64,000 nucleotides of DNA from Cladopsammia gracilis (taxonomy: Eukaryota; Cnidaria; Anthozoa; Scleractinia; Dendrophylliidae). Shown here in pieces: positions 1,075 through 53,640 of this stretch. The position numbers were made by a program, and so were the translations under genes. Numbering within the stretch: the stretch's first letter is position 1; every line of letters begins with the position of its first letter. A model generated the notes under the pieces. It had not been told where the DNA came from. It made no database searches and saw only the letters and a program-made list of their open reading frames with translations. Location of the stretch: positions 372,501 to 436,500 of the forward strand of contig JAJGOT010000219.1 of assembly GCA_022457155.1 (NCBI GenBank), in the 5' to 3' direction.

Positions 1075-1338
1075 CTTCCCTGAACTTTTTACCTGTCTGA
1101 AAGCTATGAAAACGCTCCGTAAAAGACAGGAAAAACTCGCCGATCAATGACAGTTTCAGCTTTCTAGCACCCATACCCCTCCGTCAGCGCTCGCAATATT
1201 CTGTAATTCCTTCTTCCCGCTCCTTTAGAGATTCGCCGTTCCATTCCAATATTTCCCCATTCTCTCTCCCGTCCCCAATCTTCTCTCAAGCGTAATCGAA
1301 ATCGAGGTTTTCTCTCACTTCCACGATTTCAATCCAAC

Positions 1339-11462: not shown

Positions 11463-11833
11463 TTAGGCATCAGCGTTGCAGCCTACTATTTCATACTCAT
11501 CTTCACCTTTTCTTGTGTTTCCTTGGTTTGACTCTACGTTGTAATAGCCGAGAGATGTGTCTTTGCATTGCAGTGACTGGTACTCAAGTGGGTCACTTGA
11601 CTGCTCTCCTGAAGGCCTTTGGTGGAGTTCCATATATACACCTCGCTCTGACACCTGCTGGTCATGTGTCATTTGACGCTGACCATCTCTATCAGAGGTA
11701 TGCTGGTCTGGAGTGTGTGCTTTATCAGGAGGCTTTCGTCTTTGTCGCCATATTAACAAGCCAATTACAAGAAACAACAGGACAACAACACAGGACAAAG
11801 CGACGACAGCAGCACGGTAGATGTTGAGTTGTT
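11463..11833 (-). CDS. receptor last exon: TM helix and tyrosine-rich cytoplasmic tail
   Basis: The acceptor TTTTTTAATAG precedes 11833. The exon encodes QLNIYR, then a 22-residue hydrophobic helix (AAVVALSCVVVLLFLVIGLL, IW), then RQRRK as the stop-transfer signal. The tail has Y899 (YMEL), Y917 (LEYQSL), Y929/Y930 (LGYYNV) and Y946 (YEIV). LEYQSL and LGYYNV both fit the ITIM consensus. YQSL and YYNV are eight residues apart, which fits ITAM spacing except that the last position is V. The TAA stop is at 11463-11465. The plus-strand ORF at 11399-11827 is its shadow. Confidence 0.85.
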
Positions 11834-14800: not shown

Positions 14801-17800
14801 CTACAGATTTAAAGACTGGCTTGATTGTTTTCGGTTGCTTTGTATTGTAACAATGACTCAGTCTCTTACCATCCACCATTGTTCTCTCAGACTTTACAGG
14901 ACTCCACGGTCCATCACCAACAGAAGTGAAGGCCAAAACGTGAAACTCATATTCTGTGTAATAAGCAAGCCCAGTAACTGTTTTAGTGAGAGTTGCTCCA
15001 TCGTTAATGGTTGCCGTGGTAGTTGGTGAGCCAGCAGGGTTTTTCTTTTTGTAGCTTAGTTTAAATCCTCTGATGATTCCATTTCTGGAGTCTGCTGGTG
15101 GTAACTGCCAGTTCGCAGTGATACTGGTAGAAGAAGCTACAGCCACAGTGAAGCTGGTAGGAGCTTGCGAAGGAGCTGAAATTTATAAAAACAAACTTTG
15201 ACTACGGATGTCTCTTATCAACTTACTTAACACTTCTAAAAGCATGAGCTATAATACAAATGCATTTTGACGCCATAAAAGTGACTATTTACAATACTAT
15301 TTACAACTTCAGTAGCTGTTCGTTCATCCTTGAGACACATTTTGGTAGACTTTGGAGATAATCGGTTGCTATGACAACGTGATGTGAAATATGTTCAATT
15401 TCTGCATTTTTCTGAACAATTTGAATTTTTGTAAAATCCAAGTTGGCGGCCAACTTGGCCGCCATATTGTTTGACGTCACAGATCTCCAACAGCGCTATA
15501 ACCCATAATATTTACCTTAACATGTAGAGCACATCACAGGCTATCTATAAATGTGTGCATGTCTATGATATGAATATACTCGGAGTCTAAAGTAGTAACG
15601 TGGCGTGTAGTTTTGCTTTTGAAGAGCACTGGTGAACGTTACGTGGTAAAAATGTGGTCGTTTCAATCCTGTGGCGCGAATACTAAGAATGATACTGTTT
15701 TTCTCGTATAAGTTTTAATCTCTAAACATAATTTCGTGATGAGATATATCCATGTGGAAACTTTTGCCAGAGAGCAGGAAATCAGTCCTCAAAAATTTTC
15801 TGTTATGTAATAAATGTGCCAAACGCAATGCTTTAAAATTGTAAATATTAAGAATAGTTACCCTAACTCATCCTTTTCTAACATTTCGTGCAAGATAGAA
15901 AAGGCATTATAATGTATTCAAATATGTATAGACATTACTTGTTATCGTTTATGGATTACCGTCTTCTTTCGTTCTCACAACCTGCACAGACCGAGGTCCA
16001 TTACCGATAGATGAGAAGGCCAAGACTTGAAATTCATATTCTGTGTATATCCCAAGTCCAGTTACATCTCTTGTGAGGGTTGAATTAGTTCCAATGGTTA
16101 TAACAGTAAGTGGGTCTCCTGCGGAGCTCTTGTTTCTGTGCAACAGTTTATATCCGATGATTATTCCATGTATGGAGTCTGTTGGGGGTAACTGCCAGGA
16201 TGCGCGAACACTGGTGGAGGTCAGCGGTATCATATTAAAGCTGGCAGGAGCTTGGCTTGGACCTGAACGAAAGTGACATTGTTAGTGGGAACCTTACTAG
16301 TGTAAATGGACAGTGAGTTAAGGCCTTATTGAAAAATTATCATGGAAATTTTTGTTTGGAATAATTCTGTTATCACCCCCATCCCCCTCATGTTATTATG
16401 TCATTTTGCTAAGTCTTTGTAAAAGAACACCGTAACCTTTGTTGTTTGTTTAACATTAAAGCAGAAATGAAAAAGACTACATTTAATTGTATCGATATTA
16501 CACTGAACTTCGACCAAACCGTGGATGAAAAAAGCTTACGAACTGTGAGAATTCTCATTAATTACAGGTTTGAACAGAAAGAATATAATGAAATATATCG
16601 TTAATATATTAATATGTAGTGACAGTTACCTGCAGGCTTTAGCAGTCCATACACTTCTACTCTGAGAGCTTTTCCATTATTATAATCAGTTGGCTGGAAC
16701 CGGATGAACCTCGCTCTATTGATCCCCACTAGCATGTGTTTCACAATGTCATTTCTTCCATCATTAGCGTTAAAGATCTGCAGTCAAAGTCAAATGTTTG
16801 CTTAATTAATTGGTCAGATTTATACAGATTAAAACAACTAAGATTAAAAGCTGCATTTAATATATTTGTTAAACAACCGCGTGGCGAGTTCGTATTATGC
16901 TAAGTGCTCATGTTTTCCTCCAGGTGGTATCGATAGCGGTTTGCTGTAAAAAGTAAATCGAAAATCGTTATCAAGTCTAGCGCTTTACCAACCTACATTT
17001 ACCTTACCAATGTGTTGTATCCTATATGCAAAGGTTGCATGTGATTGAAATGACTAAAATGACGTGTTCTACCCTATTTCTGTATTCGTTGTCTTACATG
17101 CTGAACGAGCTCCTCCTTTATTTTGCGTCCTAATGCTAAAACAAACCTTATCAGCATTGTTTTCCTGGTAGGTTACCCAGTCGGTGTTGTTCAATGATAA
17201 AAGCAATTTGTATTTCTTTGTCCAATGATCAGCAGTTGAACTTCCTTGAGTAGCTACAGCACAGACAAAGAACTCGTATTGCAGGTTGATTTGTAGGTAG
17301 TCATTAGCATTACCATTAGTGCTGGGTGACCACGCACCAGTCCCATTTAGTCGACCTTTATAAGCTTCATTACCAGAAGCTGATGTCGAGGCTGTAAAGC
17401 TGCTGTTTGGAAATGCGTAACTGCTGTGCAAACCGAGTGACTGAATTGGACAGGCTATAATAAAAACAAGTCTGATAAATGTGCATTGCAGATATGTTTT
17501 CCTTTCTTCCTTTTTTTATTTTCCTTTGCTTCAGGCGAAATGGTGAAAAGCATATGTTCTACCTGTTGGCCTCCTTTTTGACCTCTTTTTGTGTGTGTGT
17601 CTGCCGTTCCTGACCTAATCTAATTTATTTCTATTTGTAAATAACTTCTATTTTCTAAGTGAGCCCTGTTACGCCACAAAATGTAATAATTGACGCAAAA
17701 TGTAATAGTAACCCAAAATGTAATAACTTTTGACGCAAAATGTAATAGTAACCCAAAATGTAATAACTTTTGACGCAAAATGTAATAAACTCGGTAACCC

Positions 17801-20800: not shown

Positions 20801-23800
20801 ACAAGCGAAAAATGAACTTTGAGAAAACAGCGCTTAAAAAAACATATCGCTTCATAAACAAACTCCGCCCACAAAAGTTATACCGTCATTTCTCCGTCAA
20901 TTTTCAATATTTGTCGATAATTTTTTTTTTGGATGAAAGTTCATTCTGTAAACTTTATTTTGACGCCAAAAAAAAATTTTCGATAAATTTTCGATCTGAA
21001 GGTACACTGTAACCTTAATTGTAGTGAAAAGTTACAGAATATTTTCGAAAATGGGAGAAAAAAAATTGGAATGATCGCACGGAAATGGCTCTTGACGAAA
21101 AAGTTTTGGGAAATAAGAAATTCGCCGACATATTTTTGTTGATTATATGTTAGCCTAGCTTCTGTTCAAATTTGAGGAAAATCGAACAAATTTCCTTTGA
21201 GTTGTAGCTCTTTAAAGTGTTCCCAACAAGCGAAAAATTAACTTTGAGAAAACAGCGCTTAAAAAAACATATCGCTTCATAAACAAACTCCGCCCACAAA
21301 AGTTATACTGTCATTTCTCCGTCAATTTTCACTATTTTTCGATAATTTTTTTTGTGAATGAAAGTTCATTCTGTAAACGTTATTTTGACGCCAAAAAAAA
21401 ATTTCGATAAATTTTCGATCTGAAGGTACACTGTAACCTTAATACTGAGCCCAAACTACTGGAGAAACGGCAAAAGTACGGGGTACAGTGTTATCTTAAA
21501 ATTCCGTTTTCTTTTTTTGCCAACAAGTCATGAAACAAATGAGATTAATTAAAACGTCCTTTTTTGTTTACTATGAACTTGGACATTCTCTTCAGTAAAT
21601 AATTATATTATGTAACTTGATTAAGGTGACCTGGCCTACAAAGCGGGGAATATTACATACTTCTCTGTAATATTCCCCCAGAGGATATTAGCCCCGGCCT
21701 TCTCTCTCCTGGTGCAATCAATTCCCCCACCTCCTCCCCCACTTGTTCAGCCAGTTGGTAATTGACAAGGTTTATGCAATACAATCACCTGGAAGTATAA
21801 AAAGGAAAACGAACCATGTGGGTACTGTTTTCTTTTGTCTTCGTTTTTAACCATGAATACGCGAAGCGTAATGAACGGGTTATTGAAGACGAAGGCAAAA
21901 TTGACTCACTCGCTCACTGAGCTGTAAACTTAATGACGTAATATTGCTTTGTTACGAATGCGTTTCCTAACAAGAACAACGTGAATCCAGCGATTATAAC
22001 TAATTTGTTGTAAACGAATATAAACAACAATAAGCTTAAAGATGTTTCGCATTTGGAGTCTTTAATGCAACATTAAAATCGATCCAAACGGATTTTTCAA
22101 CACGCGTTTTGATGCGTATCTACCTTGAAATAATAAAATTTGATGTTAGTTAGGTATGTTATTCCAGGATGGTCATGTGGTTGAAGGTTTTCTTTTTCGT
22201 GCTGACGGACGACGAGGGACCAAGGGTTCGAATCTTGCCCGGGCCCTTTTTTGTGATGTACTGTCTTTTTTTTTTCTTGCATTCGTCAAAATTCGTTACG
22301 TTTAATTTATTTATGGTTGGCTCACAGGAGCCTTTCATTTCTCTTGGTGCCCCCTGGTCCATTGACCTTTATAAGAAAAGGGGGACCTAGTCGAAAGTAA
22401 AGATGAAAAAGAAATGTGGTGTTACATTGCTGCAATAATTAACAACTGTTCACCGAAGTGGAGGTGGGTAGTGGTGGATATTTACCGAGCCGCGCAAATT
22501 GCTGGGAGGTGAATAGCACTTGTTATTCCGAGTTTCAGTAGCCAATCAGAGCGCGCCAACAATGCTATCCACTGTTTCAGTATATACTAAAAGTATTTAT
22601 GGACTGAAAAGTAGATTTTGAAAATAACCGAGTGGCCTGCAAAAATTACTTTAATGTCCGCTTACTTTTAAGCACCAAAATGTTTTCAAAGGACCAAACA
22701 TTCATTTTCAGTTTCACTTTTGATCAAAATAAGACCACCTGTTTGAAAAATACGAGGTCATAGGTGTCTCATTTTCAGCTGCTCAAAAAGACAGGTTCCC
22801 TCTTCCTTAAAATTATAAAGCGGGTCAAGCTGCCAGGAAAACAACTAAAAAACCGTACTATATTTGTGGAGAGGAAAAATAAATACGTCAGTAACTTTCA
22901 TTGTGTGTTATTTCTAGTCGGCAATGGATACTCTCGTAAAATAATTCGATATTAGAGTATTACCATACCTCTTCGGGCGGAGTAAACTTCGACTTCACAC
23001 AGCGTGAGATGAACTTGAGTGCTTTTAGTAATTCGTATGGTCACATATCTTCCGTACAAACTTGGGCGACAGAAGAAGGATGCACCTCGTCCTTGAGGAA
23101 CACTGTAGTTACCATCACCACACTTAGGATTGGCTATACCCCCATTATTTGAATTTGTACCTGATAAATAGTTTATAATGACTGAGGCAATTCATGAGAT
23201 AGAGACACATACGGTTAACGTTATACCCCGCCCAAAACAACTTTGTTTTATAATGACTGAGGCAATTCATCAGATAGAGACACATACGATTAACGTTATA
23301 CCCCGCCCAAAACAACTTTGTTTTCAAGTTTAAGGACGCATGTGCAACGTCTATTTGCTTTGCCTTCACTGTAGTTTTCAATGTAATTTTCCAAAGAGTT
23401 AAAATTTTAGGTTCAAAATAACCCCTCTTTGGGCATCATTTGAACTCCAAAATTAACTCCGAATCCGGGATTAAAATAAATCCAGCCGCCAATGGAGTTA
23501 TTTTAACTCTTTGAAAAACACTGTGCTCGTAAGATTTTGCGCGCTAAAGCGCGCAGAAAACGCGCGCGGCAGCAAATCCGCATTTTTAGGCGACGCCTAA
23601 TACTATAGTTAGGGATAATCAACGTCAGTCCTCACTATAGTCCTTTTTTACTGTATTTGTTAAGGTAAGTCCATTTGAGGTTGTAAGTTAGTTAGCTATA
23701 CCGTGTGAGAGAAGCTGATAGCAAGCAAAGCGCTAAGAAAATTATTTGATATATCTTTACTTTTTGTTCTTTAAGTTTTGTTGGCAAAGAACCCAACAAA

Positions 23801-26800
23801 AGTAAGGAAAACTGTATCGATTATCTATCTTTGTCGATCATTCTTGCTTTATTGAACTTTGAAAGATTTCATTTAACCTGGTTTGGACTTACCCACTCTA
23901 ATCTCGAATTGATTCAATCTATCCCCACAGCAGTCTCCTCTGTTGACTACGTACACTTCAATCACAGGCTCCACTTGCCCCAGGTCCACTCGCCACCAGG
24001 GGTCATTTTCTTGAAGTGTGTGTGTACATGATCCACTGTGAAAGTTCGTGTTGCTGTCTCCATCCAGTGCTAAGCCGCCATTATACTGATTAAAAGTGCT
24101 TATCTGCGCCGTGTTCTTGTTGTACGCCAGATTATCTTAAAGAAAAAAGCGAAAATCACAGAAATAAATTACTGAATACAGTTGGCTAAATAAAATTGTT
24201 TTATAACCACTATAATATACATCTTTCCAGCGAAAACGTTATCAGATTAGTTAAAAACTGCTAAAACAAATTGTGTCTAAATCTGAACAGCTAATTCCGC
24301 TAGTAAATGGAATTTCTGGCGTTTGAGTGAATACGAATTAGCCGGAAATGAAATATTTCTGCGGCACGAAAGCAGTGGGGACTGGGGCTAGCCCAGTGAA
24401 ATGAGCATGTGTATGAGGGAGGGCTATATAAGAGATAAATATCACGTGGGATATCATTCTAGGCCGACACCTCAGCTTAATTAGCTAACGTTATTTTTAC
24501 TTTATTTTATTTATTTATTTATTTATTTATTTTACTTTATTTTTAAGTATGTCGTCCCTCGTGTAGCTTCGCAGGATGAGCTATTTAAAGCTTGAGCCAT
24601 GGTTCCTACCCAGATTTCCTGCCGACTTTTTTTCCCCAATGGGGATATTTTCCGGCAGGTTTTTTCTGGCCTCCGTCTGACAGTACTATCTTTAACTGTC
24701 GCTCAGCTCTGTAACATGTTACGTATCGCATACTTGGATGTAATAAGAGGTTGTAGTATAATGTATTGTTATAGTTCCCGGTGCTCCGGGCCGAAACAGC
24801 CAAAATAAACCTAACGGTTTTCGGTCATGTTGTTTAAAGTGTAGTGGAGCTGAAATACGCTGTTAGGAATTATATTCTATTAAATTTTAGAGTGATTTTC
24901 CCGCCCCGCCATTTTGAAGGCAGAGAGGGCCCTGGGGACAAGGTTGTATTGAGATTGATAAAACATGAAAAAATTACACAGCTTAAAAGTCTCTCTGCCA
25001 GGCTGCGATTCACGTTTTGTCGAATGGTCTTGTCCATATTTCACCCTTGCCTCTTTTCACGGCCCGGCTCAGAAATTTATTTAAGCCAATTTTTACAGTA
25101 CGCACGACTTTTTCGCATGCGTTCAGTGCTTACGATAAACTTACCGCATAAATCGCTTCATGTAAATCAAACCTACGACTGGTTTAGCGGGGCGTTGCAA
25201 ACGGCATGAAAAAATGTCGTGGGATTTTAAAACATAATTTAAATCCTACGGCATCGCAGCCGGAGAAAACTAATTACCGTGACACAGTAGAGAAAAAACA
25301 TTGCGTAACGCTGGAAATATTCTCATATTAAAGTGAAGTTGAATGTAACTGAAATGTCAACTTATCACTTATGTTATCTTAAACAAAACTTCCATTTCAC
25401 AGTTGTTCAGGTCACGCAACATTCCCTGTCTTCTCTTCTGCGACCAAAAATGTTAAAAAAAGGTGCATTGAAGTTAAATGAAGCTAAATTCAAAATTCAA
25501 TTCAACTAAAAAATCAAAATTATGATGGAGAGCGGCGTAAAACGTAAACCTAGCTTAGTTGCATGGGCTTTGACCTTCAGAGTTCACGTATAATTGAAAG
25601 GCGTATGCAGTACAGCAAAGGAATATATCTTTGAAAGCGAACTCGTCGTCATGTCCTTTATTTTGCAATCATTATTCTCAACGGCTGACTGTTTTAAAAT
25701 AACATGCAGAGCATTTTGAAAATATCTCTTTTTCGCATTTTTCGCTTAAAAAAAATTATTTGCTTTATTACTGTTTTGACTATCACGCCCTAAAAATGAT
25801 TTTTGATTTACTTGAAAACCATCTTATAAATTTTCTTGACACTTCATCTGCAGTTAGTGAAACGTGAGTACTACGAAATTTGAAAGTATCATTATGGAGT
25901 GTCTGACTAGATTTTGAGAAAAACGACATTGTTTAAAACAAAGTGCAATAAGTTGATATTCCTATAGTAACTGCTGTCGCTTGGAAACCAGTGACACATA
26001 GACTTTTCATCGCATTTCATATCTGAAAGCATGTCTTCCCTGCGAAGATTTGATTCAAAACATACATCCTACGGCAAAAAAAATAAGTTGAACCTCCTTA
26101 AAACAGCCGGCTTAAAAGTGTCTTCAAATTCAAATTGTTAAATTACCTCGTGAGTACACTTCCACCTCGCATAGCTGAAGAAACTGTCTCTTCGTGGTCA
26201 TAATACCAAGATATCTGCCAGTTTTCAGTGGATTTATGTAACACACAGCAGATGCTATGAACTGAATAAAAGTGTACAGTCCCACACACGCAGGATTACT
26301 TGTTACAGTCGCGCTGTTACCTGCCATAATAAAGCAAAATACAATTGTAAAAAAAGGCCCCAAGCCCTCAGCTTCTACATGTAAGCTCGTGCTACATGCA
26401 TATTGGATCAACTAAGTAGAGTTATAAAAGAATAAAATAGTAGCGTTAAACTCTTTTTTGCAGTTAAAAACACCCGCGGATATTATCGATCGGTAGGAGT
26501 AGTCCTTCAGTTTCAAGATCTGTGTTTAAAATTAGTTATGACTGAGGTTCGGTCGAAGGTAATTTCACGCGGACAAGTATGTCCGTTAGCGATTTTCCTT
26601 ACTATAGGCGACAATCGGTTGTTTCAGTTTTGAAAATTTTGGCAAGCCCCGTTGGGCTCAGCTCTACAAAATTTGGAATGTTACTACGTTTTTATAGTAT
26701 ACGGGGACAGATATGCAAATTTGTTATTTTTTTTCATTCGCCAGTGTATTACGTCATTCAGTTGTCTAGACAGTCTCGTTTCACACAATGCATATTAACT

Positions 26801-32800: not shown

Positions 32801-35800
32801 TATGCACAGTTTTTTTTTCAAAATTGCCACAAATGTTTGTTATGTTTACTGAGACGAAAATATATAAAAATCAAAAAATTTTACCTAGCAGTTTTGAAGT
32901 TATTAGCCTCAAAAGATTGAAAATGGGGTCTTTTTCGCCTCTTTTTACGTTGCCATGGTAACCAATTTCGATTTCGAAGCCACCTAAATTTGTTCATTGG
33001 TTAAGTGTTTACAAACCTGTACTAAACGTTTTCTCTTAACTTTACTGGTGTAGCTGTGATTGAATATCATAGATGTATCATGATAGGAATGTTTAAACTA
33101 TTAGGAGCCACCTTAACATTTGTTTTCACTGGGTCTGAAACACCTCACCGCCACTCACTCTCTTATCGTTTTTTATTCTTTTTTTGTCCCAGTCGCATGC
33201 AGTTTGATTTATTAAAAATTAAAATATAATTGAAACCAAGGGAAAGGAAAGGAAAAGGAAAGGTTGTAGCAAAACTAAGTTTTCTTAGACAATACATGGA
33301 TGCATTAAAAACTGGCACTTTAAACGGCGGAATCATTACCGATCCTGTATACGGAGGATGTGCCCGCGGTACAAGTGGCAGTCAAAACAGAGTTGTTGTA
33401 CGTCATCAGCCACTAAATAATTGTGCTTTTTAGTGTCGACTAAATGAAGTACCTATCGAAATCACATTGTTTATGGCACTCGAGAGGACGCTATAACAAA
33501 ACAATTTGGAGAAATAATAAGAATAGTAAATCACTGTTTTTGAGTTAAACTTAACCAATAACTTTCCAAAAGCATTGGAATTACAACGATCGAAACACCA
33601 AAAAGGTAGTCTAAATCCACATGACACAAATGACGTAGGACACTCAGTTTTTTCCGCGCGCTGGGCTGTGATTGCTTAATTCAGATCAGGCCGTATGCAA
33701 GGCAGGCAATAGGAACAACAAGCTACCTTAACTTGTCCAATGTCTTTATAATCTGTCCAAGTTGTCCCATCTGTGGATGTCTGTAGGGTGTATGTCTTCA
33801 CCCAATCCGCTGATTTGGAATTCCCCTGAGTGGACACAGCACAGATGATATGAAGTGTCTTAAAGTCGATCTGCAGAAATGGAGAACTGTCACTTGTGGA
33901 TGCACACCATGCTGGCCCTGCCGTGTATTTCAATCGGCCATGATTGGCCGGTGTGTTCAAATTTAGTTCAGAAGAAGCACTTATTTGACTGTTTAGGATT
34001 GCATTACTTTCCATTCCAAGATCAAGATCAATACAGTCTCCTGCAGTAAAATAGTATAAAAAACATTAACCACAATTATAAAATTCTCTACTTGCACAAA
34101 TCCCATGATACACCTCTTTTACCCCCCGAAATTTTGCATAATCATTGTTTGCAATTTCTCCTGGGACATGAAGATGTCCCAAGGGAAATCTAAAACAATG
34201 CCTATGCAAATTTTTTTTGGGGGTAGAAGCGGTGTATTATGATATTGTGCAAGTAGAGAATGCTCAAGGAAATGCGCGCTCTATGATTGGGTAAAACGAG
34301 TTCATTATAACTCGATAAAGCACGCGCGTGACGTAAGGTTCATTATAAAAGAAATAAAAAAACTTGTTCCTCGTGCATTGTTTAGTTATATGAGCCCTTG
34401 GGAATTAAGAACACTCGAGAAGTACGAGGAGCACTCGCCTTTGGCTCGTGCTTCTCTGCACTTTTCTCGTGAGTCTTTAATATAGTGCGCATGGCGTGAC
34501 ATACTGCTACGTCATGCAACAGGGTATTTCAAACAACAATTACATGTAAAACGTTTCCTGATGTGGATTTGCGTGCTTCTTGTCATTTTCTTTGTCCTTT
34601 TCCTTTCATTAATTTTGTAACAGTTTGAATACAAGATTAATATAATTTCCTTTGTTTTTTCAACAGAAAGTCTTACGGGTTGTCATATTTTAATTTTGTT
34701 CTGCTTGGTTCAAGCAAACTCGATAAACTAAGGCATAAGTTGTCATCAACAATTCGTTGGATGTAATTCGCACATCATGTGCGAATTACATCCAGTGATT
34801 GCAGGAAAAACAACTTTCGCTTAATCAGATTAGTACTTGGGACTTTCCACTCTTTATACTAGCCTTCCACATGCCAAACTTAAACATCAACTCCACGATC
34901 TACTCGCAAGGGTTTTTAACACCAGATGGAAGAGTTTCATAGCAACCAATAATTTCCACACATTCTGGGCCAATGATAGGAAGTCTACGAAGTACACTTA
35001 CTTCTCCTTTTGGCAACTGTGCCTCGCTATTGACCTTCCTATCGACAATATCTACGTCCGCTTCGGAAACTCAGTTTTCCGGCAAATTATTTGCATACCA
35101 ATGGGCACTAAAAGCGCGCCTTTGTTGGCTGATCTGTTCCTCCACACCTTCGAGTATGAGGTTCATGCTCAGAACAATGAAGCAAGATATGACCAAAACC
35201 ATCCAATTTAGCAACACCTTTCGTTATATCGACGATTTATTGAGCGTTAACAATGACAATTTTGGAAATTACATCAGCGACATTTACCCGTCGCCCTGGA
35301 ACTAAAGGACACTACCTTAACATCAAATGAGGTGTGTTATCTGGACACGAGAATCAAGAATGGTGACAGCAACACACCTTTCCATCTCAACGTCTACGAC
35401 AAGAGGGATGACGGCTCATTTCGGATTGTCAATTTTCCTCATATGGACAGCAACATTCCCGCCAATCCGGCCAATGGTGTTTATATATCTCAATTGGTAA
35501 GATATGCTAGAATTTGCACATCGAGTTGGATTTTATACATAGACTTCGCCGACTTTCATCACGTCTCCTTCATCAAGGGTTCAAATCTACGCTCCTTCGT
35601 AAATCGTTTCCTTACGGGTAACCACTCTTAATTACAAAAAGTTGTAATTGGATAGTGACCGCGTGCTTAAATTACGTAAAAATAGGCCTAGGATGACCAA
35701 ACGCAATCTAAAAGTTTGTTGTTAAAACTTAACGATTAATTTAGAAATAGCACGCAGCTACTCTCAATCTAAAAACAAAAACTTGCTTATAGAGAAACAT

Positions 35801-47800: not shown

Positions 47801-49836
47801 ATTTAATATGCCCGATGCAAATCAGGAGAATACAAACTCTTCTTACTAGGTATGATTGACGGCAGAGTAAATTGAAATCGCTCAAAGTAGTTTTGATTCG
47901 AAAGGTCGCGTAACAGTGAAATCAGTGGTAACCGGTTCGGGTATCTCTAAGTACTGCTTAAATTTGTTACTACGAAGCTGAACCCTTTTAAGCCCCAAAG
48001 TGTCCTCCGATTTTCTTCGATCCAGTCTCTTTTCGATCTGCTCAAGTTAGCCAGCACCGTTTGTTCTTGCGACTCCTTTCTCAAGTATGGTCACCATACT
48101 AAAAAAAAAACTAAAAAAAAAAAATATGTACAGAATATTTTGCCAGCCAGCAAGAATTCCACTGGGGAACAGATAAAGTGAGGAACAGATTCGTTGGGTG
48201 CTCCTGTACTTGCCTAGTAAATGCTTAATGAATGTTTTTTTATTGTATCGGGAGGTTTAGAATTCACGACAATTCTTGGTTTTCACGTGACGTCATCAAA
48301 TTCGAAAATCATAAATTGTAATGCCTTCTGAATTTATATGTCCACCAGGTTGAAGATGACTAAAAAATAAATCTTTTCACAAGTATCCAACCCGGTAGCG
48401 TCTTTCGTTTTGAAAATACAGCATTTTGAATTTCTGACTTTTCACCGTACGTGACACCAACATGGCGTCCGTGACAAAGCTTTTTCCTATGAAACAAGGG
48501 CCTCTCCTCGTGATTTTTGGCACTTTGGGCAGTTAAAGTATTAGGAATGCAGTTTATGCGAATGAATAGTAGTTCACGAGAGAAAAGTAATCGCTTTCAG
48601 AGCGAAAGTGAAGTCCAGATGTTTTTATTGATTTCCGGCGGAGGGGCACCAAGATGGCGTTTCCATACAAAGCTCTGTAAATTTGAGTCGAGTGCTTCGG
48701 CGAATAATTCAACAACGGGATACTGCACAGATCTGAGACTTAGCGAAGTTTTTTATTTGTTACTTTTTTATAACATTGCAAATTATTGGCTTCTTTCACT
48801 AAATAGTTTCGATTCTAAAACATTATATCTTGGTGTCCCTAAGGGATGGCGTTTCCATACAAAGACAAAAGTTTATTAGCATTCCCATATACATACATGG
48901 TATTGCCTATATACTATATACTATATATATATATACTATATACTCTTTTATAACATTACAAATTATTGCCTTCCTTCGCTAATTCGTTTCGATTTTAAAA
49001 TTTTATGGCGTGACAGTGAAAACCAAGAATTGTGCAAATGTGGTTGTTAAAATTTCGTGTGTCATGAACAAGAAACTGGTAGAACTGCAAAGCTTTCAGT
49101 CCAAAAAACGGAGTAAATAAATGTTTGCGTGTTAAGAAAGACGCTTGAGAGAAGCCAAATAAAACTTATACGAAAATTTAAAGAAAGATTAGGAAAAAAT
49201 TGTCATCTTTCACAACACTGATGACGATCGAAAGTTAGCCGCATAATTATAAGCGTGTCCGGGTTAAGCCGACTTTTAACACCTTTCTCTGTCTTAATTT
49301 TTTGGTCTGCGTGGTTCTTGTTACAACTCCTACTGAGATTTAGGTAAACGAATTTTACCTAAGCAGCGGGGATCCCAAATTCTGAACTGGTATAAGCTCA
49401 GGGTACGCACGAATCAGACATCTGCGTGATCATGAACAACATGGAACAGCCAAATCAGGGTAACAGAAAGTAAATTACATTTATTATACATATCCGGAGA
49501 AACAACCAATCTTTTTGCAATTTCAAGATCTGCTAAGTTACTTATAATTATAGAAACCATATTAAACAAAGTAAAGTGCAGATTTTACTGTTTACTTCGA
49601 TGCAAGATTCAATTTTATTCAAAGCATCATCGCGCATACTAAGCAGATATCAAAATATTTTAAGTTCGGTAAAATTCCACTATGAAATTCGCGTTTAGAC
49701 TGTCGAAATTCCTGCAAAACAAACAAACTTAGCATATGGCCACATAGCAGATAACACTGGACTCACCTGACGCCAAACGAAGAAGAAGTGCGAGTAGTAA
49801 CAGCCGGAAATACAGGTAAAAATCACATGACGCCAT
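11463..49836 (-). CDS. modular lectin-type receptor: SP-F5/8C-FTP-FTP-F5/8C-FN3-FN3-TM-tyrosine tail
   Basis: I assembled this gene from 13 exons: 49767-49836, 33727-34040, 29702-29852, 27060-27314, 26147-26320, 23893-24135, 22969-23160, 17147-17454, 16630-16777, 15960-16262, 14870-15175, 13365-13397 and 11463-11833. They total 2,868 nt (955 residues plus stop), and every junction has GT-AG ends and a matching phase. The order is: signal peptide (1-23), discoidin (25-178), two fucolectin/FTP domains (179-321, 322-466), discoidin (467-618), two fibronectin III (619-821), juxtamembrane, TM helix (about 840-861) and a 94-residue tail. Known roles of F5/8C and FTP domains are glycan or lipid binding at cell surfaces; tails with YxxL/V motifs recruit SH2 proteins after phosphorylation. 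A receptor for glycans, symbionts, pathogens or neighbouring cells is inferred. No kinase or phosphatase domain follows the TM. The first exon and the 33-bp exon are the least certain parts; other splice forms or extra exons cannot be excluded. Confidence 0.75.
11834..12208. other. intron sequence, no feature
   Basis: Receptor intron between the last exon and the 33-bp exon. AT-rich, with no supported gene on either strand. Confidence 0.4.
12209..12350. repeat. dispersed 140-bp repeat, copy 1
   Basis: It shares TTTGTAAAATCCAAG, TGGCGGCCA, TGACGTCAC, TTTACCTTAAC and TGTAGAGCACAT, in the same order and orientation, with 15425-15560. Both copies lie in introns of the receptor gene. The copy contains a GGCGGCC palindromic block and a CRE-like TGACGTCA. 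Confidence 0.7.
12408..12476. repeat. inverted repeat with CTGGGAACGAGGTTG end
   Basis: CCAACCTCATTCCCAGGGCT and AGCCCTGGGAACGAGGTTG form arms around a short GC-rich loop. The CTGGGAACGAGGTTG-type end recurs near 24930 and 42875, so it belongs to a dispersed family. Confidence 0.6.
12480..13364. other. intron sequence with a weak internal duplication
   Basis: Two related stretches near 12850-12990 and 12990-13100 share AACAAACCGT, TCGTTTATCGTACAG and GCTAACGCTT. No gene is supported. Confidence 0.4.
13365..13397 (-). CDS. candidate 33-bp juxtamembrane exon of the receptor
   Basis: The acceptor CGTTTTATCAG and donor GATGATA|GTAAGT flank a 33-nt open segment reading GFAEKIEKDD, phase 1 at both ends. 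It can be included or skipped without breaking the frame. It would place a charged linker between the second FN3 domain and the TM helix. The call rests on strong splice sites and phase only. Confidence 0.5.
13565..13700. repeat. snap-back inverted repeat in intron
   Basis: TTGTGGTGCAATTTTGTCCT and TGGTGCAAATGTTATTTTCC are mirrored about 40 bp further on, giving nearly perfect arms of about 45 bp. The ORFs on both strands here arise from the palindrome. Confidence 0.8.
14040..14780. repeat. GAATTCC-rich low-complexity block around an inverted repeat
   Basis: Short CCGGA/TTCCGG and GGAATTCCGCC units repeat on both sides of arms at 14387-14432 and 14525-14571. The arms carry CCATTTGCACGATGACGTCA on one side and its reverse complement on the other. 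It looks like a decayed fold-back element in the receptor intron. Long open frames here are composition artefacts. Confidence 0.6.
14870..15175 (-). CDS. receptor exon: fibronectin type III domain 2
   Basis: A 306-nt exon, phase 1-1, between AAATTTCAG and GTAAGAGAC. It encodes SQAPTSF, the FN3 tryptophan in ANWQLPP, the GFKLSYKKK strand, and the TGLAYYTEYEFHVLAF core with the conserved tyrosine. One exon equals one domain, so it is a duplicable module. It is the membrane-proximal FN3. Confidence 0.9.
15425..15560. repeat. dispersed 140-bp repeat, copy 2
   Basis: Same orientation as 12209-12350. It carries TTGGCGGCCAACTTGGCCGC and TGACGTCAC. It lies between the two FN3 exons, so the two repeats flank FN3-2 and the 33-bp exon as direct repeats. 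Confidence 0.7.
15960..16262 (-). CDS. receptor exon: fibronectin type III domain 1
   Basis: A 303-nt exon, phase 1-1, acceptor TTTCGTTCAG and donor GTAATCC. It encodes SQAPASF, ASWQLPP, the GYKLLHRNK strand and TGLGIYTEYEFQVLAF. It is clearly homologous to the next FN3 exon, consistent with exon duplication. Confidence 0.9.
16630..16777 (-). CDS. receptor exon: second half of discoidin (F5/8C) domain 2
   Basis: A 148-nt exon, entry phase 0 and exit phase 1. It encodes IFNANDGRNDIVKH, then ARFIRFQP and ALRVEVYG, the usual C-terminal strands of F5/8C domains. The usual final cysteine is replaced by the LLKPA linker. Confidence 0.9.
17147..17454 (-). CDS. receptor exon: first half of discoidin (F5/8C) domain 2
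   Basis: A 308-nt exon, entry phase 1 and exit phase 0. It encodes CPIQSLGL, FTASTSASG, the GRLNGTGAWSPS strand, DYLQINLQ, VCAVATQG and the KKYKLLLS core. The split site inside the domain is at the same place as in domain 1. Confidence 0.92.
17668..19880. mobile_element. 2.2-kb transposon with repeat-filled terminal inverted repeats
   Basis: The ends GTTACGCC and GGCGTAAC carry inverted arms of about 300 bp (17668-17970 and 19548-19880). Each arm is a run of ACGCAAAATGTAATA and ACCCAAAATGTAATA units, followed by a shared block with ACGTCATCGATCA. Flanks TGAGCCCT and AAGCCCTC share GCCCT, an imperfect match to an 8-bp target duplication. No transposase is seen. A LINE tail is inserted inside. 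It lies in the 5.5-kb receptor intron. The ORFs across the arms are repeat artefacts. Confidence 0.75.
18600..19217 (+). mobile_element. 5'-truncated LINE (CR1/L2-like) 3' end
   Basis: The reading frame ending at 18926 encodes the C-terminal tail of a non-LTR reverse transcriptase, with IHSYNTRSS, SFSRLGVKLWN and DYIQI. The 3' UTR has a CCCCGCCCCGATTAGC hairpin region, and the copy ends in a (TTG)n tail at about 19198-19217. It is 5'-truncated, as usual for this class, and inserted in the 17668-19880 element. The minus-strand copy at 28520-29411 is a relative. Confidence 0.8.
19996..21438. mobile_element. outer TTAA element (719 bp) split by its own relative
   Basis: TTAA at 19992-19995 then GGTTGCAGTGTACCTTC, and GAAGGTACACTGTAACC then TTAA at 21439-21442, bound the outer copy. 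Its middle is interrupted by a second copy of the same element at 20295-21014. Without the insert and one TTAA the outer copy is 719 bp. Non-autonomous: ORFs here are short and not conserved between copies. Confidence 0.88.
20295..21014. mobile_element. inner TTAA element, full 720-bp copy
   Basis: GGTTACAGTGTACCTTC starts and GAAGGTACACTGTAACC ends this copy, with TTAA at 20291-20294 and 21015-21018. The host sequence on either side rejoins into the outer copy after removal. TTAA targeting points to a piggyBac- or Kolobok-type transposase acting in trans. Confidence 0.9.
21443..22158. other. intron sequence, no gene
   Basis: AT-rich stretch with a pyrimidine-rich block near 21715-21745. A short palindromic segment near 21850-21885 resembles positions 1-35 in inverted orientation (CATTACGC, AACGGGTT). 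Nothing else is supported. Confidence 0.4.
22160..22260 (+). mobile_element. tRNA-derived SINE head, candidate
   Basis: GGATGGTCATGTGGTTGAAG resembles an A box of a leucine/serine-type tRNA, and GGTTCGAATCTTGCCCGGG resembles a B box, about 50 bp apart. A T-run follows. It is not an intact tRNA gene because the acceptor stem does not pair cleanly. Confidence 0.4.
22969..23160 (-). CDS. receptor exon: second half of FTP (fucolectin) domain 2
   Basis: A 192-nt exon, phase 1-1, acceptor TATTTATCAG and donor GTATGG. It encodes NPKCGDG, FFCRPSLYGRYVTI and LTLCEVEVYS, the standard closing strand of the FTP family. Together with 23893-24135 it makes a 145-residue domain, the usual family size. Confidence 0.9.
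23173..23322. repeat. 75-bp tandem duplication beside an exon
   Basis: Two copies of a 75-bp unit (TTATAATGACTGAGGCAATT onward, ending in the CCCGCCCAAAACAACTTTG block) differ at about two positions. The nearer edge is only 12 bp from the receptor acceptor at 23161, so the duplication changes the branch-point region of that intron. Confidence 0.85.
23893..24135 (-). CDS. receptor exon: first half of FTP (fucolectin) domain 2
   Basis: A 243-nt exon, phase 1-1, acceptor TTTCTTTAAG and donor GTAAGT. It encodes DNLAYNKNTAQIS, GLALDGD, CTHT, DPWWRVDLG and NRGDCCGDRLNQFEIRVG. The RGDCCGDR segment matches the R-x-D-C-C-x-x-R fucose site of eel agglutinin, including the vicinal cysteine pair, and the histidine lies upstream in CTHT. 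This domain is the best candidate for actual fucose binding. Confidence 0.92.
24136..26146. other. intron between FTP domains, with microsatellite
   Basis: It holds a (TTTA)n microsatellite at about 24496-24545 and a GGGCCCTGGGGACAAGGTTG-type repeat end near 24930. The ORF 24844-25209 has no family resemblance and is left out. Confidence 0.5.
26147..26320 (-). CDS. receptor exon: second half of FTP (fucolectin) domain 1
   Basis: A 174-nt exon, phase 1-1, acceptor before GTAACAGC and donor GTAATT. It encodes NSATVTSNPACVG, KTGRYLGIM and LQLCEVEVYS. The Cys pattern and the LCEVEVY closing strand match FTP domain 2. Confidence 0.9.
26321..27059. other. intron within FTP domain 1
   Basis: No repeat or gene recognised. 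The plus-strand ORF 26579-26833 has no supporting evidence. Confidence 0.4.
27060..27314 (-). CDS. receptor exon: first half of FTP (fucolectin) domain 1
   Basis: A 255-nt exon, phase 1-1, acceptor TTAACCCAG and donor GTGGGT. It encodes ENLAAGKTTQQSST, AVDGNADT, CSHT, SWWRVDLG and EVRIVNRFSVSSF. The fold signature is complete, but the R-x-D-C-C-x-x-R fucose signature is replaced by RFSVSS, so this copy has probably lost or changed its sugar specificity. Confidence 0.92.
27699..27790 (+). mobile_element. tRNA-derived SINE, candidate
   Basis: GCGCGGTGGTTCAGTGGTCA looks like a tRNA A-box head and GTTCGAGGCTCAGTCACTG like a degenerate B box about 40 bp on. Nearby 27480-27560 has a GGATGCTAATCCATCGCAGG block, a common dispersed-repeat type. 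Family identity is not certain. Confidence 0.4.
28520..29411 (-). mobile_element. 5'-truncated LINE (CR1/L2-like), minus strand
   Basis: A frame open from about 29411 to 28773 encodes the C-terminal part of a non-LTR reverse transcriptase: IDENLSWKYHIAHIASKIS, LLYGIVAWG, NIHSYNTRSSSR and FSRYGVKVWNSLP. The 3' UTR has a GCCCGC...GCGGGC hairpin at about 28590-28625. (ACTTCA)n sequence borders the 5' truncation at about 29415-29440. It lies in the intron between the FTP and discoidin exons, in the same orientation as the host gene. Confidence 0.85.
29702..29852 (-). CDS. receptor exon: second half of discoidin (F5/8C) domain 1
   Basis: A 151-nt exon, entry phase 0 and exit phase 1, acceptor TTTTCAG and donor GTGAAT. 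It encodes TFTGNSDETTVKKN, ALTRWLRFVI and RTEVFGVKYKP, the last strands of an F5/8C domain. The first half is 3.9 kb away, with two large insertions in between. I found this exon by looking for the missing half of the domain. Confidence 0.85.
29980..30540 (+). mobile_element. LINE 3' fragment with a frameshift
   Basis: Two overlapping frames together encode a reverse transcriptase tail: HTYNTRYAARGNFY in one, then DSWEKLPKEIKDLSHFDFKK in the other; a frameshift lies near 30135. The copy ends with AATAAAGTATATTGTATTG near 30515-30540. It belongs to a different LINE lineage from the one at 28520. Antisense to the receptor gene. Confidence 0.7.
31417..33112. mobile_element. TTAA-flanked element carrying a Penelope-like insertion
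   Basis: TTAA at 31413-31416 then GGTGGCTCC, and GGAGCCACC then TTAA at 33113-33116, bound the element. It is interrupted at 31437-32311 by a palindromic Penelope-like insertion with a 14-bp target duplication. Without that insert its own length is about 0.8 kb. It lies in the receptor intron within discoidin domain 1. Confidence 0.8.
31437..32311. mobile_element. Penelope-like fold-back: two 3' ends head to head
   Basis: Arms at about 31458-31812 and 31880-32240 are inverted copies meeting at a small AAGGTCATGT-repeat centre. On the right arm the plus frame encodes HFNQPNHSLQDLKVAVLKAG and PSGLNQDFSFT, the C-terminal part of the GIY-YIG endonuclease region of Penelope-like proteins. Each arm ends in ACCCTGAAGAAGGCAGCATT then GCCGAAACGTC, a hammerhead-like motif. 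The insertion is flanked by TCCATATTATTGAG on both sides (31423-31436 and 32313-32326). Confidence 0.85.
33117..33726. other. intron sequence, no gene
   Basis: No repeat or gene recognised. A purine-rich GGAAAGGAAA run sits at 33240-33265. Confidence 0.4.
33727..34040 (-). CDS. receptor exon: first half of discoidin (F5/8C) domain 1
   Basis: A 314-nt exon, entry phase 1 and exit phase 0, acceptor TTTACTGCAG and donor GTAGCT. It encodes CIDLDLGMESNAI, QISASSEL, GRLKYTAGPAWCAS, FLQIDFKTLHIICAVSTQG and YTLQTSTDGTTWTDYKD. This is a well-kept F5/8C half. It begins with the first cysteine of the domain, directly after the signal peptide in the proposed protein. Confidence 0.93.
34083..34261. mobile_element. 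snap-back MITE in receptor intron 1
   Basis: TTCTCTACTTGCACAA and TTGTGCAAGTAGAGAA bound about 80-bp inverted arms around a GGGACATGAAGATGTCCC centre. It starts 43 bp upstream of the discoidin-1 acceptor. Confidence 0.75.
34759..34793. repeat. perfect 17-bp hairpin
   Basis: GGATGTAATTCGCACAT, one central base, then its exact reverse complement. It lies just before the reverse transcriptase fragment. Confidence 0.85.
34820..35635 (+). pseudogene. reverse transcriptase fragment, two frameshifts (Penelope-like or related)
   Basis: Three consecutive frames read as one reverse transcriptase: STLYTSLPHAKL and IPMGTKSAPLLADLFLH (to 35208), then FRYIDDLLSVNNDNFGNY, then CYLDTRIKNGD, VYDKRDD and NGVYISQLVRYAR (to 35631). 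The YIDD catalytic box is intact, but frameshifts near 35205 and 35300 break the gene. The IPMGT-YIDD arrangement is like Penelope-type polymerases; the exact clade needs a tree. No endonuclease region is seen. Antisense in receptor intron 1. Confidence 0.8.
35833..35930. repeat. dispersed 95-bp repeat, copy 1
   Basis: It shares ACACTATGAGATCTTTATCT and CTGGATAACTCTACTGACT with 57811-57905, in the same orientation. Class unknown; it may be the end of a larger element. Confidence 0.65.
36349..36622. mobile_element. short palindromic Penelope-like insertion with 12-bp target duplication
   Basis: Arms meet near 36535 at GAATTTGCCCAATTC and extend outward through the same sequence as 475-640. 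The flanks repeat ATACTAATTAAG exactly (36337-36348 and 36623-36634). It holds no coding sequence. Its structure parallels the larger fold-back at 31437. Confidence 0.8.
36635..38455. other. intron sequence, no supported feature
   Basis: Part of receptor intron 1. Short ORFs (37106-37303, 37826-38020) have no resemblance to known families. No clear repeat structure is seen. Confidence 0.4.
38460..38900 (-). repeat. dispersed repeat, inverted partner of 44130-44390
   Basis: CCAGCGGGACCCCAAGCGTAA near 38545, GACAAGGGAGGAAACAT near 38655 and GGATGTGGACCGCAACATAC near 38857 each occur, reverse-complemented and in mirrored order, at 44150-44290. The 122-residue minus ORF here is part of the repeat and has no known family. 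Confidence 0.65.
39150..40556. mobile_element. inverted-arm element with tacggacacctct-type internal repeats
   Basis: Arms at about 39160-39315 and 40395-40556 mirror each other (GACTTTGCGGAGCTATATCT, AAGATATCGCTTTTAAACT, CAGCAGTGTCGATGGAT). Inside lies a block at 40120-40320 with repeated CTCTCTAATACGGACA units, resembling ends of pogo/Tigger-type transposons. A GAGTTC microsatellite is at about 40040-40085. No transposase is seen. Confidence 0.6.
40575..40624. repeat. 50-bp near-perfect palindrome
   Basis: CGCGCGGCCAAAT and TCTTGCCTAC are mirrored around CCGG with one mismatch in 25 pairs. It abuts the right arm of the 39150-40556 element. Confidence 0.85.
41066..41426. mobile_element. 361-bp MITE built from AAGACGCG repeats
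   Basis: The ends GTGCCATTTATACG and CGTATAAATGGCCC continue into inverted arms of about 60 bp (AAAATAAGACGCGTCTTATC, TAAGACGCGACTTAAATAAG). TATTA flanks both sides (41061-41065 and 41427-41431). The interior repeats TTCGCGTCTTATTT-type units in both orientations. No coding capacity. Confidence 0.85.
41432..44129. other. intron sequence, no supported gene
   Basis: Some frames are open (42964-43263 minus, 43740-44099 minus), but none has a recognised domain. A (TTG)n run lies at 44057-44074. A GCCTTGGGAACGAGGTTGG repeat end lies near 42872. Confidence 0.4.
44130..44390 (+). repeat. dispersed repeat, inverted partner of 38460-38900
   Basis: It carries GTATGTTGCGGTCCACATCC, ATGTTTCCTCCCTTGTCTC and TTACGCTTGGGGTCCCGCTGG, matching the left partner in reverse complement. 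The pair could be two copies of one family or the two ends of a 5.9-kb insertion. Confidence 0.65.
44391..45361. other. intron sequence, no supported feature
   Basis: No gene, and no repeat clear enough to annotate. Confidence 0.4.
45362..45931. repeat. 51-bp minisatellite, about 11 units
   Basis: TCCTTAACAGATACACTGGG, then GCATTAGTTTGCCTGTGTTTAACC, recurs at a 51-bp period. As 51 is a multiple of three, the minus strand stays open for 76 codons as a 17-residue repeat, but there is no start, exon or conservation argument for a gene. Part of the array reappears at 46483-46560 beyond an insertion. Confidence 0.9.
45932..46482. mobile_element. 551-bp hAT-like MITE inserted in the minisatellite
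   Basis: The ends GGAGTGGCGAATGGT and ACCATTCGCCACCCC match over 15 bp with one difference. Flanks CTTCAGTA and TTTCGGTG agree at 5 of 8 sites, the rest being transitions, consistent with an eroded 8-bp target duplication. The interior is GTCTCGG-rich, with a snap-back core at 46215-46402 (ACAAATTCGGCTAACGCATT and its mirror). Confidence 0.75.
46483..46560. repeat. minisatellite remainder beyond the insertion
   Basis: About 1.5 diverged units of the 51-bp repeat continue after the 551-bp insertion. Confidence 0.7.
46561..47318. other. intron sequence, no supported gene
   Basis: AT-rich. The minus ORF 46947-47231 has no recognisable domain. CCCAGCCAGC/GCTGGGAAAA short inverted motifs occur near 47085-47160. 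Confidence 0.4.
47319..47937. mobile_element. 619-bp MITE with 185-bp inverted arms
   Basis: Arms at 47319-47507 and 47751-47937 mirror each other: TTTCACTGTTACGCGACC, TTGATTCGAA-type, TTTACTCTGCCGTCAATCAT and GTTGGACGTTTTATCGGCTT. The open frames on each arm are the same sequence read from both ends. The central 240 bp is unique. Confidence 0.85.
48270..49037. mobile_element. MITE-like element with CAATTCTTGGTTTTCAC ends
   Basis: CAATTCTTGGTTTTCAC at the left is mirrored by GTGAAAACCAAGAATTG at the right. The interior holds two direct copies of GGCGTTTCCATACAAAG (48656, 48846) and of a TTATAACATT(G/A)CAAATTATT block, plus an ATACTATATA microsatellite at 48905-48945. Confidence 0.65.
49038..49766. 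other. start of receptor intron 1, no other feature
   Basis: No gene or repeat recognised. The intron's donor is at 49761-49766 (GTGAGT on the minus strand). Confidence 0.4.
49767..49836 (-). CDS. candidate first coding exon of the receptor: signal peptide
   Basis: ATG at 49836 opens MASCDFYLYFRLLLLALLLR, then LAS, then a donor G|GTGAGT. The hydrophobic LLLLALLL core and the small LAS end look like a signal peptide. The phase-1 exit matches the next exon exactly, giving S-G-D-C at the start of discoidin 1. The 15.7-kb intron is long but is filled with transposons. No better signal exon was seen between here and 34040. Assignment is inferred. Confidence 0.55.
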
Positions 49837-52744: not shown

Positions 52745-53640
52745 AATTATAATCCCCCGATACCAACACGCTTCCTAAGGGAAATGTTTGGTCTAATTCT
52801 AAGAGAGAACTCATTCCAGTTCAATAACGATAATTATCTCCAAACACATGAAACCGCCATGGGAACGAAAATGGCAGTATCTTTTGCCAATGTCTTCATG
52901 GCGGAAATCGAAACAAAACTAATTCAACAAAACAGTACCAAGCCACGAGAATGGAAACGTTACATTGATGTCGTATTTTGCCTTTGGGATAGCAATAGAA
53001 ACGACGTGGATCATTTTATTGAACAAGCTAATAGATTCCACCCTACTATTAAATTCACGGCAGAAATATCAGAGAATGAAATTCATTTCCTTGACACAGT
53101 TGTGTTTAAAGGGGAAAGATTCAAAAAAGAATCCATACTGCATATCAAAACCCACTTCAAGCCGTCCGAAACCTTTCAGTATACACATCTCACTTCCTGT
53201 CACCCACCAGGCGTGAAGAGAGGTTTTGTAAAAGGCGAGGCAATCCGACTACTTAGAAAAAACTCTTCAAAAACAACATTTGAAAAGTGCCTTTCTGACT
53301 TCAAACTACGTCTCGAAACAAGAGGCTATCCTAAAACAATGATAGAAAGGTCACTAACAGGGGTCACATTTGCCTCAAGACAGTCGGCACTTCAACAAAA
53401 GATAAAAAACAAAGAGAGGATACTGCCTTTTGTCACTACACACCATCCCGCAGTGAAAAACCTTAAAAAAACAGTGATGGAAAATTGGAGTTTAATACAA
53501 AATCAGCCTTTGCTGAACACAATCTATGAAAAACCTCCGATCATATCATACAAGAGGGGTAAATCCCTTAAAGACACGCTCGTAAGAGCTAAAATCTGAA
53601 GGCTGTAAATGCAACGCAACCACAAAACCACGTGGGGAGT
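52745..53640 (+). pseudogene. Penelope-like reverse transcriptase fragment
   Basis: The ORF continuing to 53599 reads NPPIPTRFLREMFGLILREN, QTHETAMGTKMAVSFANVFM, KRYIDVVFCLWD, IHFLDTVVFKG, HPPGVKRGFVKGEAIRLLR and LVRAKI, the palm-to-thumb part of a Penelope-type polymerase. The catalytic YIDD is changed to YIDV, so it is inactive. After the stop at 53597-53599 a GCKCNATTK stretch resembles the start of the cysteine-containing linker before the endonuclease, but no GIY-YIG domain follows. It is inserted in the 50109-54703 transposon. Confidence 0.88.

What the first reader, a model, noticed from the sequence alone, without database searches (positions are those of the whole stretch)
11463..49836. 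Candidate lectin-type receptor: discoidin + fucolectin + FN3 + ITAM-like tail
Thirteen exons read by eye join into one 955-residue frame: signal peptide, F5/8C, FTP, FTP, F5/8C, FN3, FN3, TM, tyrosine tail. I know of no standard named family with this exact order. Glycan-binding domains outside and YxxL/V motifs inside are what one expects of an immune, symbiont-recognition or allorecognition receptor. The domain exons are seen directly; the function is inferred.
Basis: partly seen in the sequence, partly recalled or inferred. Interest (0 to 1): 0.85.

Follow-up and report, generated by a model that had tools for sequence, protein, structure and literature searches.

The report
Coral lectin-type receptor with tyrosine tail
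The sequence holds what looks like one intact, 12-exon gene from a stony coral for a cell-surface receptor with sugar-binding-type domains outside and a tyrosine signalling tail inside; it belongs to a multi-member coral family that databases leave uncharacterized, and its function is inferred, not tested.

Summary
On the minus strand, 12 exons (49836 to 11463) join into one 944-residue frame: signal peptide, F5/8C, F-type lectin x2, F5/8C, FN3 x2, transmembrane segment, tail. Every intron is GT-AG. I could not reproduce 13 exons and 955 residues. Homologues match each exon after the first; P0003 aligns from signal peptide to tail, so "two genes" is unlikely. The ectodomain is not unique: 49 of 79 cnidarian hits examined share the D-L-L-D core, all stony corals or unnamed JGI records; the exact string with a tail and no Ig was seen only here. 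The second lectin domain keeps the full fucose triad; the first does not, and only 16 of 50 members do. The tail carries YMEL, LEYQSL, YYNV, YEIV, a signature shared by relatives; no strict ITAM, two ITIM-pattern motifs, one ITAM-like pair ending in V. Some relatives carry the ectodomain on a tyrosine phosphatase or kinase instead. Best reading: a fucose/glycan recognition receptor signalling by SH2 docking; anatomy is shown by sequence, ligand and function are inferred. Interest moderate; higher if the family proves to be a coral recognition locus.

The parts
49767..49836 (-). Exon 1: start codon and signal peptide (MASCDFYLYFRLLLLALLLRLAS), donor CAG|GTGAGT, phase 1 out
   Evidence: N-terminus aligns with P0003 up to the shared GDCIDLDLGMES
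33727..34040 (-). Exon 2: first part of F5/8C domain 1
29702..29852 (-). Exon 3: second part of F5/8C domain 1 (phase-0 intron inside the domain)
27060..27314 (-). Exon 4: F-type lectin domain 1, first part; His217 and Arg245 kept, following loop altered (RFSVSSFIQQR)
26147..26320 (-). Exon 5: F-type lectin domain 1, second part
23893..24135 (-). Exon 6: F-type lectin domain 2, first part, with fucose triad H360, R387 (RGDCCGDR), R394
22969..23160 (-). Exon 7: F-type lectin domain 2, second part
17147..17454 (-). Exon 8: first part of F5/8C domain 2
16630..16777 (-). Exon 9: second part of F5/8C domain 2 (phase-0 intron inside the domain)
15960..16262 (-). Exon 10: FN3 domain 1
14870..15175 (-). 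Exon 11: FN3 domain 2
11463..11833 (-). Exon 12: short linker, transmembrane segment, cytoplasmic tail with YMEL, LEYQSL, YYNV, YEIV, stop codon

Best explanation
A stony-coral gene for a type I single-pass membrane receptor: signal peptide, F5/8C, two F-type lectin domains, F5/8C, two FN3, TM, about 94-residue tail. SHOWN by sequence: the open exon chain, domain order, the complete fucose-binding triad in lectin domain 2, and a tail signature kept by relatives. INFERRED: lectin domain 2 binds fucosylated glycans on a neighbouring cell, symbiont, microbe or tissue; the F5/8C domains add a second contact; clustering lets a tyrosine kinase phosphorylate the tail, which docks SH2 proteins (YEIV/YEEI resembles a Src-family site, YYNV a Grb2-type YxN site, LEYQSL and LGYYNV match the ITIM pattern for SHP-type phosphatases; these assignments are recalled, from no call). 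It would thus work as a recognition receptor with mixed docking output, beside paralogues that put the same kind of ectodomain on a tyrosine kinase or phosphatase.
For: Gene model; Pfam; homologues, alignment along the whole chain with P0003, all 1866 tblastn hits on exons. Fucose triad H-R-R aligns without a gap over this stretch to lectin 1k12 and to the first domain of 3cqo; motif definition from PMC5712786 passages. Tail signature among 17 tail-type proteins, the window included: YM[ED]L in 14, [EA]Yx[SNT]L in 11, Y[YC]N in 11 (two of the 17, P0014 and P0038, have identical tails). Kinase and phosphatase relatives.
Against: No transcript, ligand, expression or signalling data here. The triad is not kept across the family (HRR in 16 of 50 aligned members), so fucose binding may not be the shared function. 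No strict ITAM. Seven of the nine tail-type D-L-L-D members in the trees have a membrane-proximal Ig, which this gene lacks. A tail-only protein search found nothing at E<=1 among 42 candidates.
Confidence: 0.6

Rival explanations
1. Cell-cell or cell-matrix adhesion and guidance receptor (neuropilin, contactin or LAR-like), in which the lectin domains are structural and the tail is a cytoskeletal or endocytic docking site, with no immune or allorecognition role.
For: Apart from lectins, the best solved relatives by sequence are coagulation factors, neuropilins, LAR-type receptor phosphatases and contactins; the fucose triad is incomplete in 34 of 50 members; Yxx-hydrophobic motifs also serve endocytosis (recalled).
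Against: Several divergent members per species, apparently on shared contigs, with differing lectin loops and repeated tail modules in Oculina, are unusual for a conserved guidance receptor (inference).
Confidence: 0.25
2. Allorecognition receptor specifically: a polymorphic coral locus working like Hydractinia Alr or the Botryllus fester co-receptors.
Against: No polymorphism or genetic data; no Ig domain in this gene, unlike both named systems; the same features fit microbe or symbiont recognition.
Confidence: 0.12
3. The chain is an artefact: exons of two or more genes, or a decayed copy.
For: Introns of 15.7, 5.5 and 3.0 kb, some repeat-rich, allow misjoining; the membrane-proximal Ig of most tail-type relatives is absent.
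Against: All exon frames open, GT-AG everywhere, phases consistent; P0003 joins signal peptide, D-L-L-D, FN3, TM and tail in one protein.
Confidence: 0.03

Closest known systems
Uncharacterized tail-type coral proteins (Porites lutea P0001, unnamed JGI P0003, Oculina P0006, P0012 and P0016, Acropora palmata P0010)
   Same: D-L-L-D-FN3 ectodomain, 56-66% identity over the aligned part, TM; tails with YMEL/YMDL, EYxxL, YYN and YEE-type motifs in varying completeness
   Different: These six have one or two Ig domains before the TM; FN3 number varies; P0003 has FMEL in place of YMEL
Coral 'receptor-type tyrosine-protein phosphatase S-like' or 'T-like' (Acropora palmata P0026, A. muricata P0028, A. 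digitifera P0032)
   Same: Same D-L-L-D-FN3 ectodomain; P0026 and P0028 even share the window's string D-L-L-D-N-N-TM (Pfam counts three fn3 in P0026)
   Different: Tyrosine-phosphatase domains inside, one with VHCSAGVGRT, instead of a docking tail
Coral kinase forms (Montipora P0018, P0039, P0045; Oculina P0088; Pocillopora P0090)
   Same: D-L-L-D-FN3 ectodomain
   Different: Tyrosine-kinase domain inside (PF07714); P0090 ends before the catalytic loop
F-type lectins: eel agglutinin (1k12) and FBP32 (3cqo)
   Same: Lectin domain 2 has the same H, R, RGDCCxxR layout
   Different: Those are soluble lectins (recalled); here the domain sits in a membrane receptor
Hydractinia Alr proteins and Botryllus FcoR receptors
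   Same: Recognition receptors with ITIM/hemITAM-type tyrosine motifs from gene-rich recognition loci (PMC12065747 and PMC11999971, passages)
   Different: Immunoglobulin ectodomains; the passages that I saw mention no F5/8C or F-type lectin domains

Membership tests
F-type lectin domain | Basic triad: His, then RxDx4(R/K) | tested here: met
   Lectin domain 2: H360, R387-G-D-CCGD-R394. The review gives 24 residues between H and R; here there are 26, and lectin 1k12 aligns without a gap over this stretch.
F-type lectin domain | Same triad in lectin domain 1 | tested here: not met
   H217 and R245 present, but RFSVSSFIQQR stands where RxDx4R would be
F-type lectin domain | Calcium motif h2DGx | tested here: inconclusive
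   Domain 1 has AVDGN; domain 2 has ALDGD, with an L that is not among the examples V, A, I (sequence; motif)
ITAM receptor | YxxL/I-x6-8-YxxL/I (consensus recalled) | tested here: not met
   0 strict; one relaxed match YQSL-x8-YYNV
ITIM receptor | [S/I/V/L]xYxx[L/I/V] in the tail (consensus recalled) | tested here: met
   LEYQSL and LGYYNV; two or more in shuffles with P=0.002
ITIM receptor | Recruits SH2 phosphatases when phosphorylated | not testable with these tools
   Needs biochemistry
Receptor tyrosine phosphatase / receptor tyrosine kinase | Catalytic domain inside | tested here: not met
   Pfam finds F5/8C, the NedA-like family, fn3 and one hit below its cut-off, no catalytic domain
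Hydractinia Alr / Botryllus FcoR | Immunoglobulin ectodomain | tested here: not met
   No Ig in the model and none found in the last intron
Stony-coral D-L-L-D-FN3 family | F5/8C, lectin, lectin, F5/8C, FN3, TM with homologous tail | tested here: met
   the window pairs with P0003 at 95/90 among 17 labelled rows, though its place in the 50-row tree is unresolved
Polymorphic allorecognition locus | High allelic diversity linked to fusion or rejection | not testable with these tools
   Single sequence; no population or genetic data

The most novel reading that the evidence does not exclude
Stony corals carry a clustered receptor locus in which one glycan-binding ectodomain (F5/8C, two F-type lectins, F5/8C, FN3) is mounted on three outputs of one signalling chemistry: a tyrosine docking tail, a tyrosine kinase and a tyrosine phosphatase. 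Together they would form a writer, reader and eraser set that sees the same or related glycans and serves as the coral's recognition complex for symbionts, microbes or kin.
Probability: 0.15. Interest if true: 0.85.

Novelty: new variant of a known kind. Interest (0 to 1): 0.5.

Why it matters
Which receptors corals use to accept algae, reject microbes and tell kin from strangers is largely open. A coral family whose members can carry an intact fucose-type lectin site and a conserved SH2-docking tail is a concrete, testable candidate set. The one coral lectin census passage that I saw (PMC10236652) lists eight InterPro entries used to call lectin-like families; as far as I recall what they mean, none is the F-type lectin or F5/8C entry, so families like this one may have been passed over.

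Tried and rejected
Thirteenth exon or Ig exon in 14870-11833: searched with Ig, linker and tail segments of five homologues; only the TM/tail exon matched, the rest had E of 0.089 or worse. Tail-only homologue search: 42 candidates, none at E<=1, so the tail evidence rests. Repeated moves of the kinase between ectodomain lineages: in the 50-row tree the AU test rejected one kinase clade (p 1.4e-48) and one tail clade (p 1e-9), but 33 of those rows have no known inner part and may be truncated models, so the test was unfair. With the 17 labelled rows only, one origin of the kinase forms is not rejected (p-AU 0.33), so I dropped the claim. In the 50-row tree the inner-part labels were no more clustered than many shuffles (as low in 37 of 200); among the 17 labelled rows they were (0 of 200). 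Naming the species: the kelch-like neighbour is at most 71% identical to the 120 listed of 808 hits, so I say only stony coral, by inference from the homologues. Hypervariable triad: its columns lie between the 28th and 79th percentile of entropy, not extreme. Papers: nine answered searches listed none that I recognised as describing this family; a tenth did not run. Whole-genome search of the window's own assembly did not complete. No structure prediction was run.

Full report
WHAT IS THERE. Between 49836 and 11463 on the minus strand lie 12 exons that join into one open frame of 944 residues. Every intron is GT-AG. The two introns that split the F5/8C domains are phase 0; the other nine, including those inside the two lectin domains, are phase 1. 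Phase-1 domain borders are usual for modular extracellular proteins (general knowledge). Introns range from 367 to 15,726 bases. The order is signal peptide, F5/8C, F-type lectin, F-type lectin, F5/8C, FN3, FN3, transmembrane segment, tail. Pfam scores: PF00754 212.9 bits, PF22633 139.5 bits, fn3 90.3 bits.

IS IT ONE GENE. The protein search gave 556 proteins at E<=0.001 among 7,984 scored candidates, of which the best 120 are listed. tblastn of those 120 against the window gave 1,866 hits at E<=0.001, all overlapping one of the 11 non-signal exons by at least 30 bases. P0003, a 1,022-residue protein from an unnamed 5,539-base JGI contig, aligns from signal peptide (MAQSHHKLYFAVVILALVLCLVSGDCIDLDLGMES against MASCDFYLYFRLLLLALLLRLASGDCIDLDLGMES) through TM into the tail. 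A contig that short could not hold introns like those of the window, so it is probably from a transcript; that is inference. The first exon, 15.7 kb upstream, rests on this match, on its donor and phase, and on its signal-peptide character.

THE FAMILY. With profiles built from the window's domains I drew the architecture of 79 of the 120 listed hits and of the window. Of these 80, 50 have an uninterrupted D-L-L-D: Porites, Oculina, Stylophora, Pocillopora, Acropora and Montipora, two unnamed JGI proteins, and the window. The one sea anemone among the 79 (Actinia, P0115) has four F5/8C-type domains, FN3, Ig and a tail with YMEL, without lectin domains. Seven of the nine tail-type D-L-L-D members add one or two Ig domains before the membrane; the window and P0011 do not. 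The window's exact string D-L-L-D-N-N-TM recurs only in two phosphatase and two kinase forms, so with a tail it was seen only here; the strings are approximate, since Pfam counts three fn3 in P0026. In the 17-row tree the window pairs with P0003 (95/90); in the 50-row tree its place is unresolved. Several hits per species sit on contigs of identical length (my reading): 7 Oculina hits (25,581,907 bases), 6 A. palmata (18,272,776, one a phosphatase form), 9 A. muricata (27,243,440, one a phosphatase form), 8 M. capricornis (42,763,911, two kinase forms). Hits are not genes: some are labelled isoforms, and P0070 and P0075 are identical over the D-L-L-D part. Together with near-consecutive locus names this suggests clusters, but positions were not available.

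INNER PARTS. Four relatives carry a tyrosine phosphatase (PF00102; VHCSAGVGRT in 4 of 4), three of them with the full D-L-L-D. Six carry a kinase (PF07714; HRD and DFG in 5 of 6, P0090 being cut short), five of them with the full D-L-L-D. Phosphatase regions of Acropora P0026 and Pocillopora P0096 are 56% identical over 405 columns; kinase regions of Montipora P0018 and Oculina P0088 are 39% over 515. The phosphatase forms group with the tail-type P0010 at 100/100, so the inner part seems to have changed within one ectodomain lineage. Whether kinase forms arose once or more often is unresolved (p-AU 0.33). These are gene models of other species and may contain fusion errors, although several species agree.

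THE TAIL. It reads YMEL, LEYQSL, YYNV, YEIV. Shuffles of the same 94 residues give a mean of 0.47 Yxx[LIV] motifs against 4 seen (P=0.00015); two or more ITIM-pattern motifs have P=0.002; strict ITAM 0, relaxed pair 1 (P=0.0048). Across 17 tail-type proteins, the window included: YM[ED]L in 14, [EA]Yx[SNT]L in 11, Y[YC]N in 11, ITIM pattern in 10, relaxed ITAM in 6, strict ITAM in 1 (Actinia). In Oculina P0012, P0006 and P0041 the EYxxL...YYNV module is repeated. A conserved multi-site docking tail fits better than the word ITAM.

THE LECTIN SITE. Lectin domain 2 has H360, R387, D389, C390, C391, R394 and aligns without a gap over this stretch to lectin 1k12 (eel agglutinin, name recalled) and to the first domain of FBP32 3cqo. 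PMC5712786 (passages) defines the motif. Lectin domain 1 keeps H217 and R245 but not the RxDx4R loop. Across 50 members the HRR triad of domain 2 is complete in 16, the window included; some misses may be misalignment, for example in Montipora. The window's receptor is therefore a plausible fucose binder, and the family as a whole need not be.

HOW IT PROBABLY WORKS. A ligand on a cell or particle is bound by lectin domain 2 and perhaps F5/8C; receptors cluster; a cytoplasmic kinase or a kinase paralogue phosphorylates the tail; SH2 proteins dock; phosphatase paralogues may reset it. Only the anatomy is shown. Tyrosine motifs of ITIM or hemITAM type on candidate recognition receptors are reported for Hydractinia and Botryllus (PMC12065747, passages), which is precedent for the mechanism, not for membership.

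NOVELTY. Database entries exist, named uncharacterized or after distant proteins. Nine searches of the open library listed no paper that I recognised as describing the family. Of the papers I saw passages only: PMC5094078, PMC5712786, PMC8162421, PMC6208414, PMC12065747, PMC11999971, PMC10236652, PMC12314368, PMC9145168, PMC12005167. Most subscription papers are not in that library. I rate it a new variant of a known kind: lectin-type receptor with tyrosine-based signalling.

Noticed in passing
1207-3117 +: Uninterrupted BTB-BACK-kelch (KLHL-type) ORF; best of 808 hits 71% identical; a Porites lutea kelch-like 7 (64%) lies on a contig of the same length as receptor relatives P0001 and P0007, hinting at a conserved neighbourhood.
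   Followed up: partly
61191-64000: 477-bp tandem array, 5.9 copies, with a repeated, nearly identical 114-residue open frame; the one copy given to Pfam had no match.
   Followed up: partly
4431-5964: 79-bp satellite, 19.5 copies.
   Followed up: no
17677-17880 and 19668-19871: A 46-bp repeat array (CAAAATGTAATA...) and an array of what looks like its reverse complement 2 kb away, in the intron before the second F5/8C domain.
   Followed up: no
19992-21443: Two adjacent tandem duplications, 299 bp x2 (96%) and 425 bp x2 (95%), in the same intron.
   Followed up: no
28776-29417 -, 34834-35631 +, 50711-52774 -, 52667-53599 +: Open frames that look by eye like reverse-transcriptase or transposase remnants; the seven pieces given to Pfam had no match at E<=0.001, so this is unconfirmed.
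   Followed up: partly
23172-23324: 75-bp duplication just upstream of exon 7 of the receptor gene.
   Followed up: no
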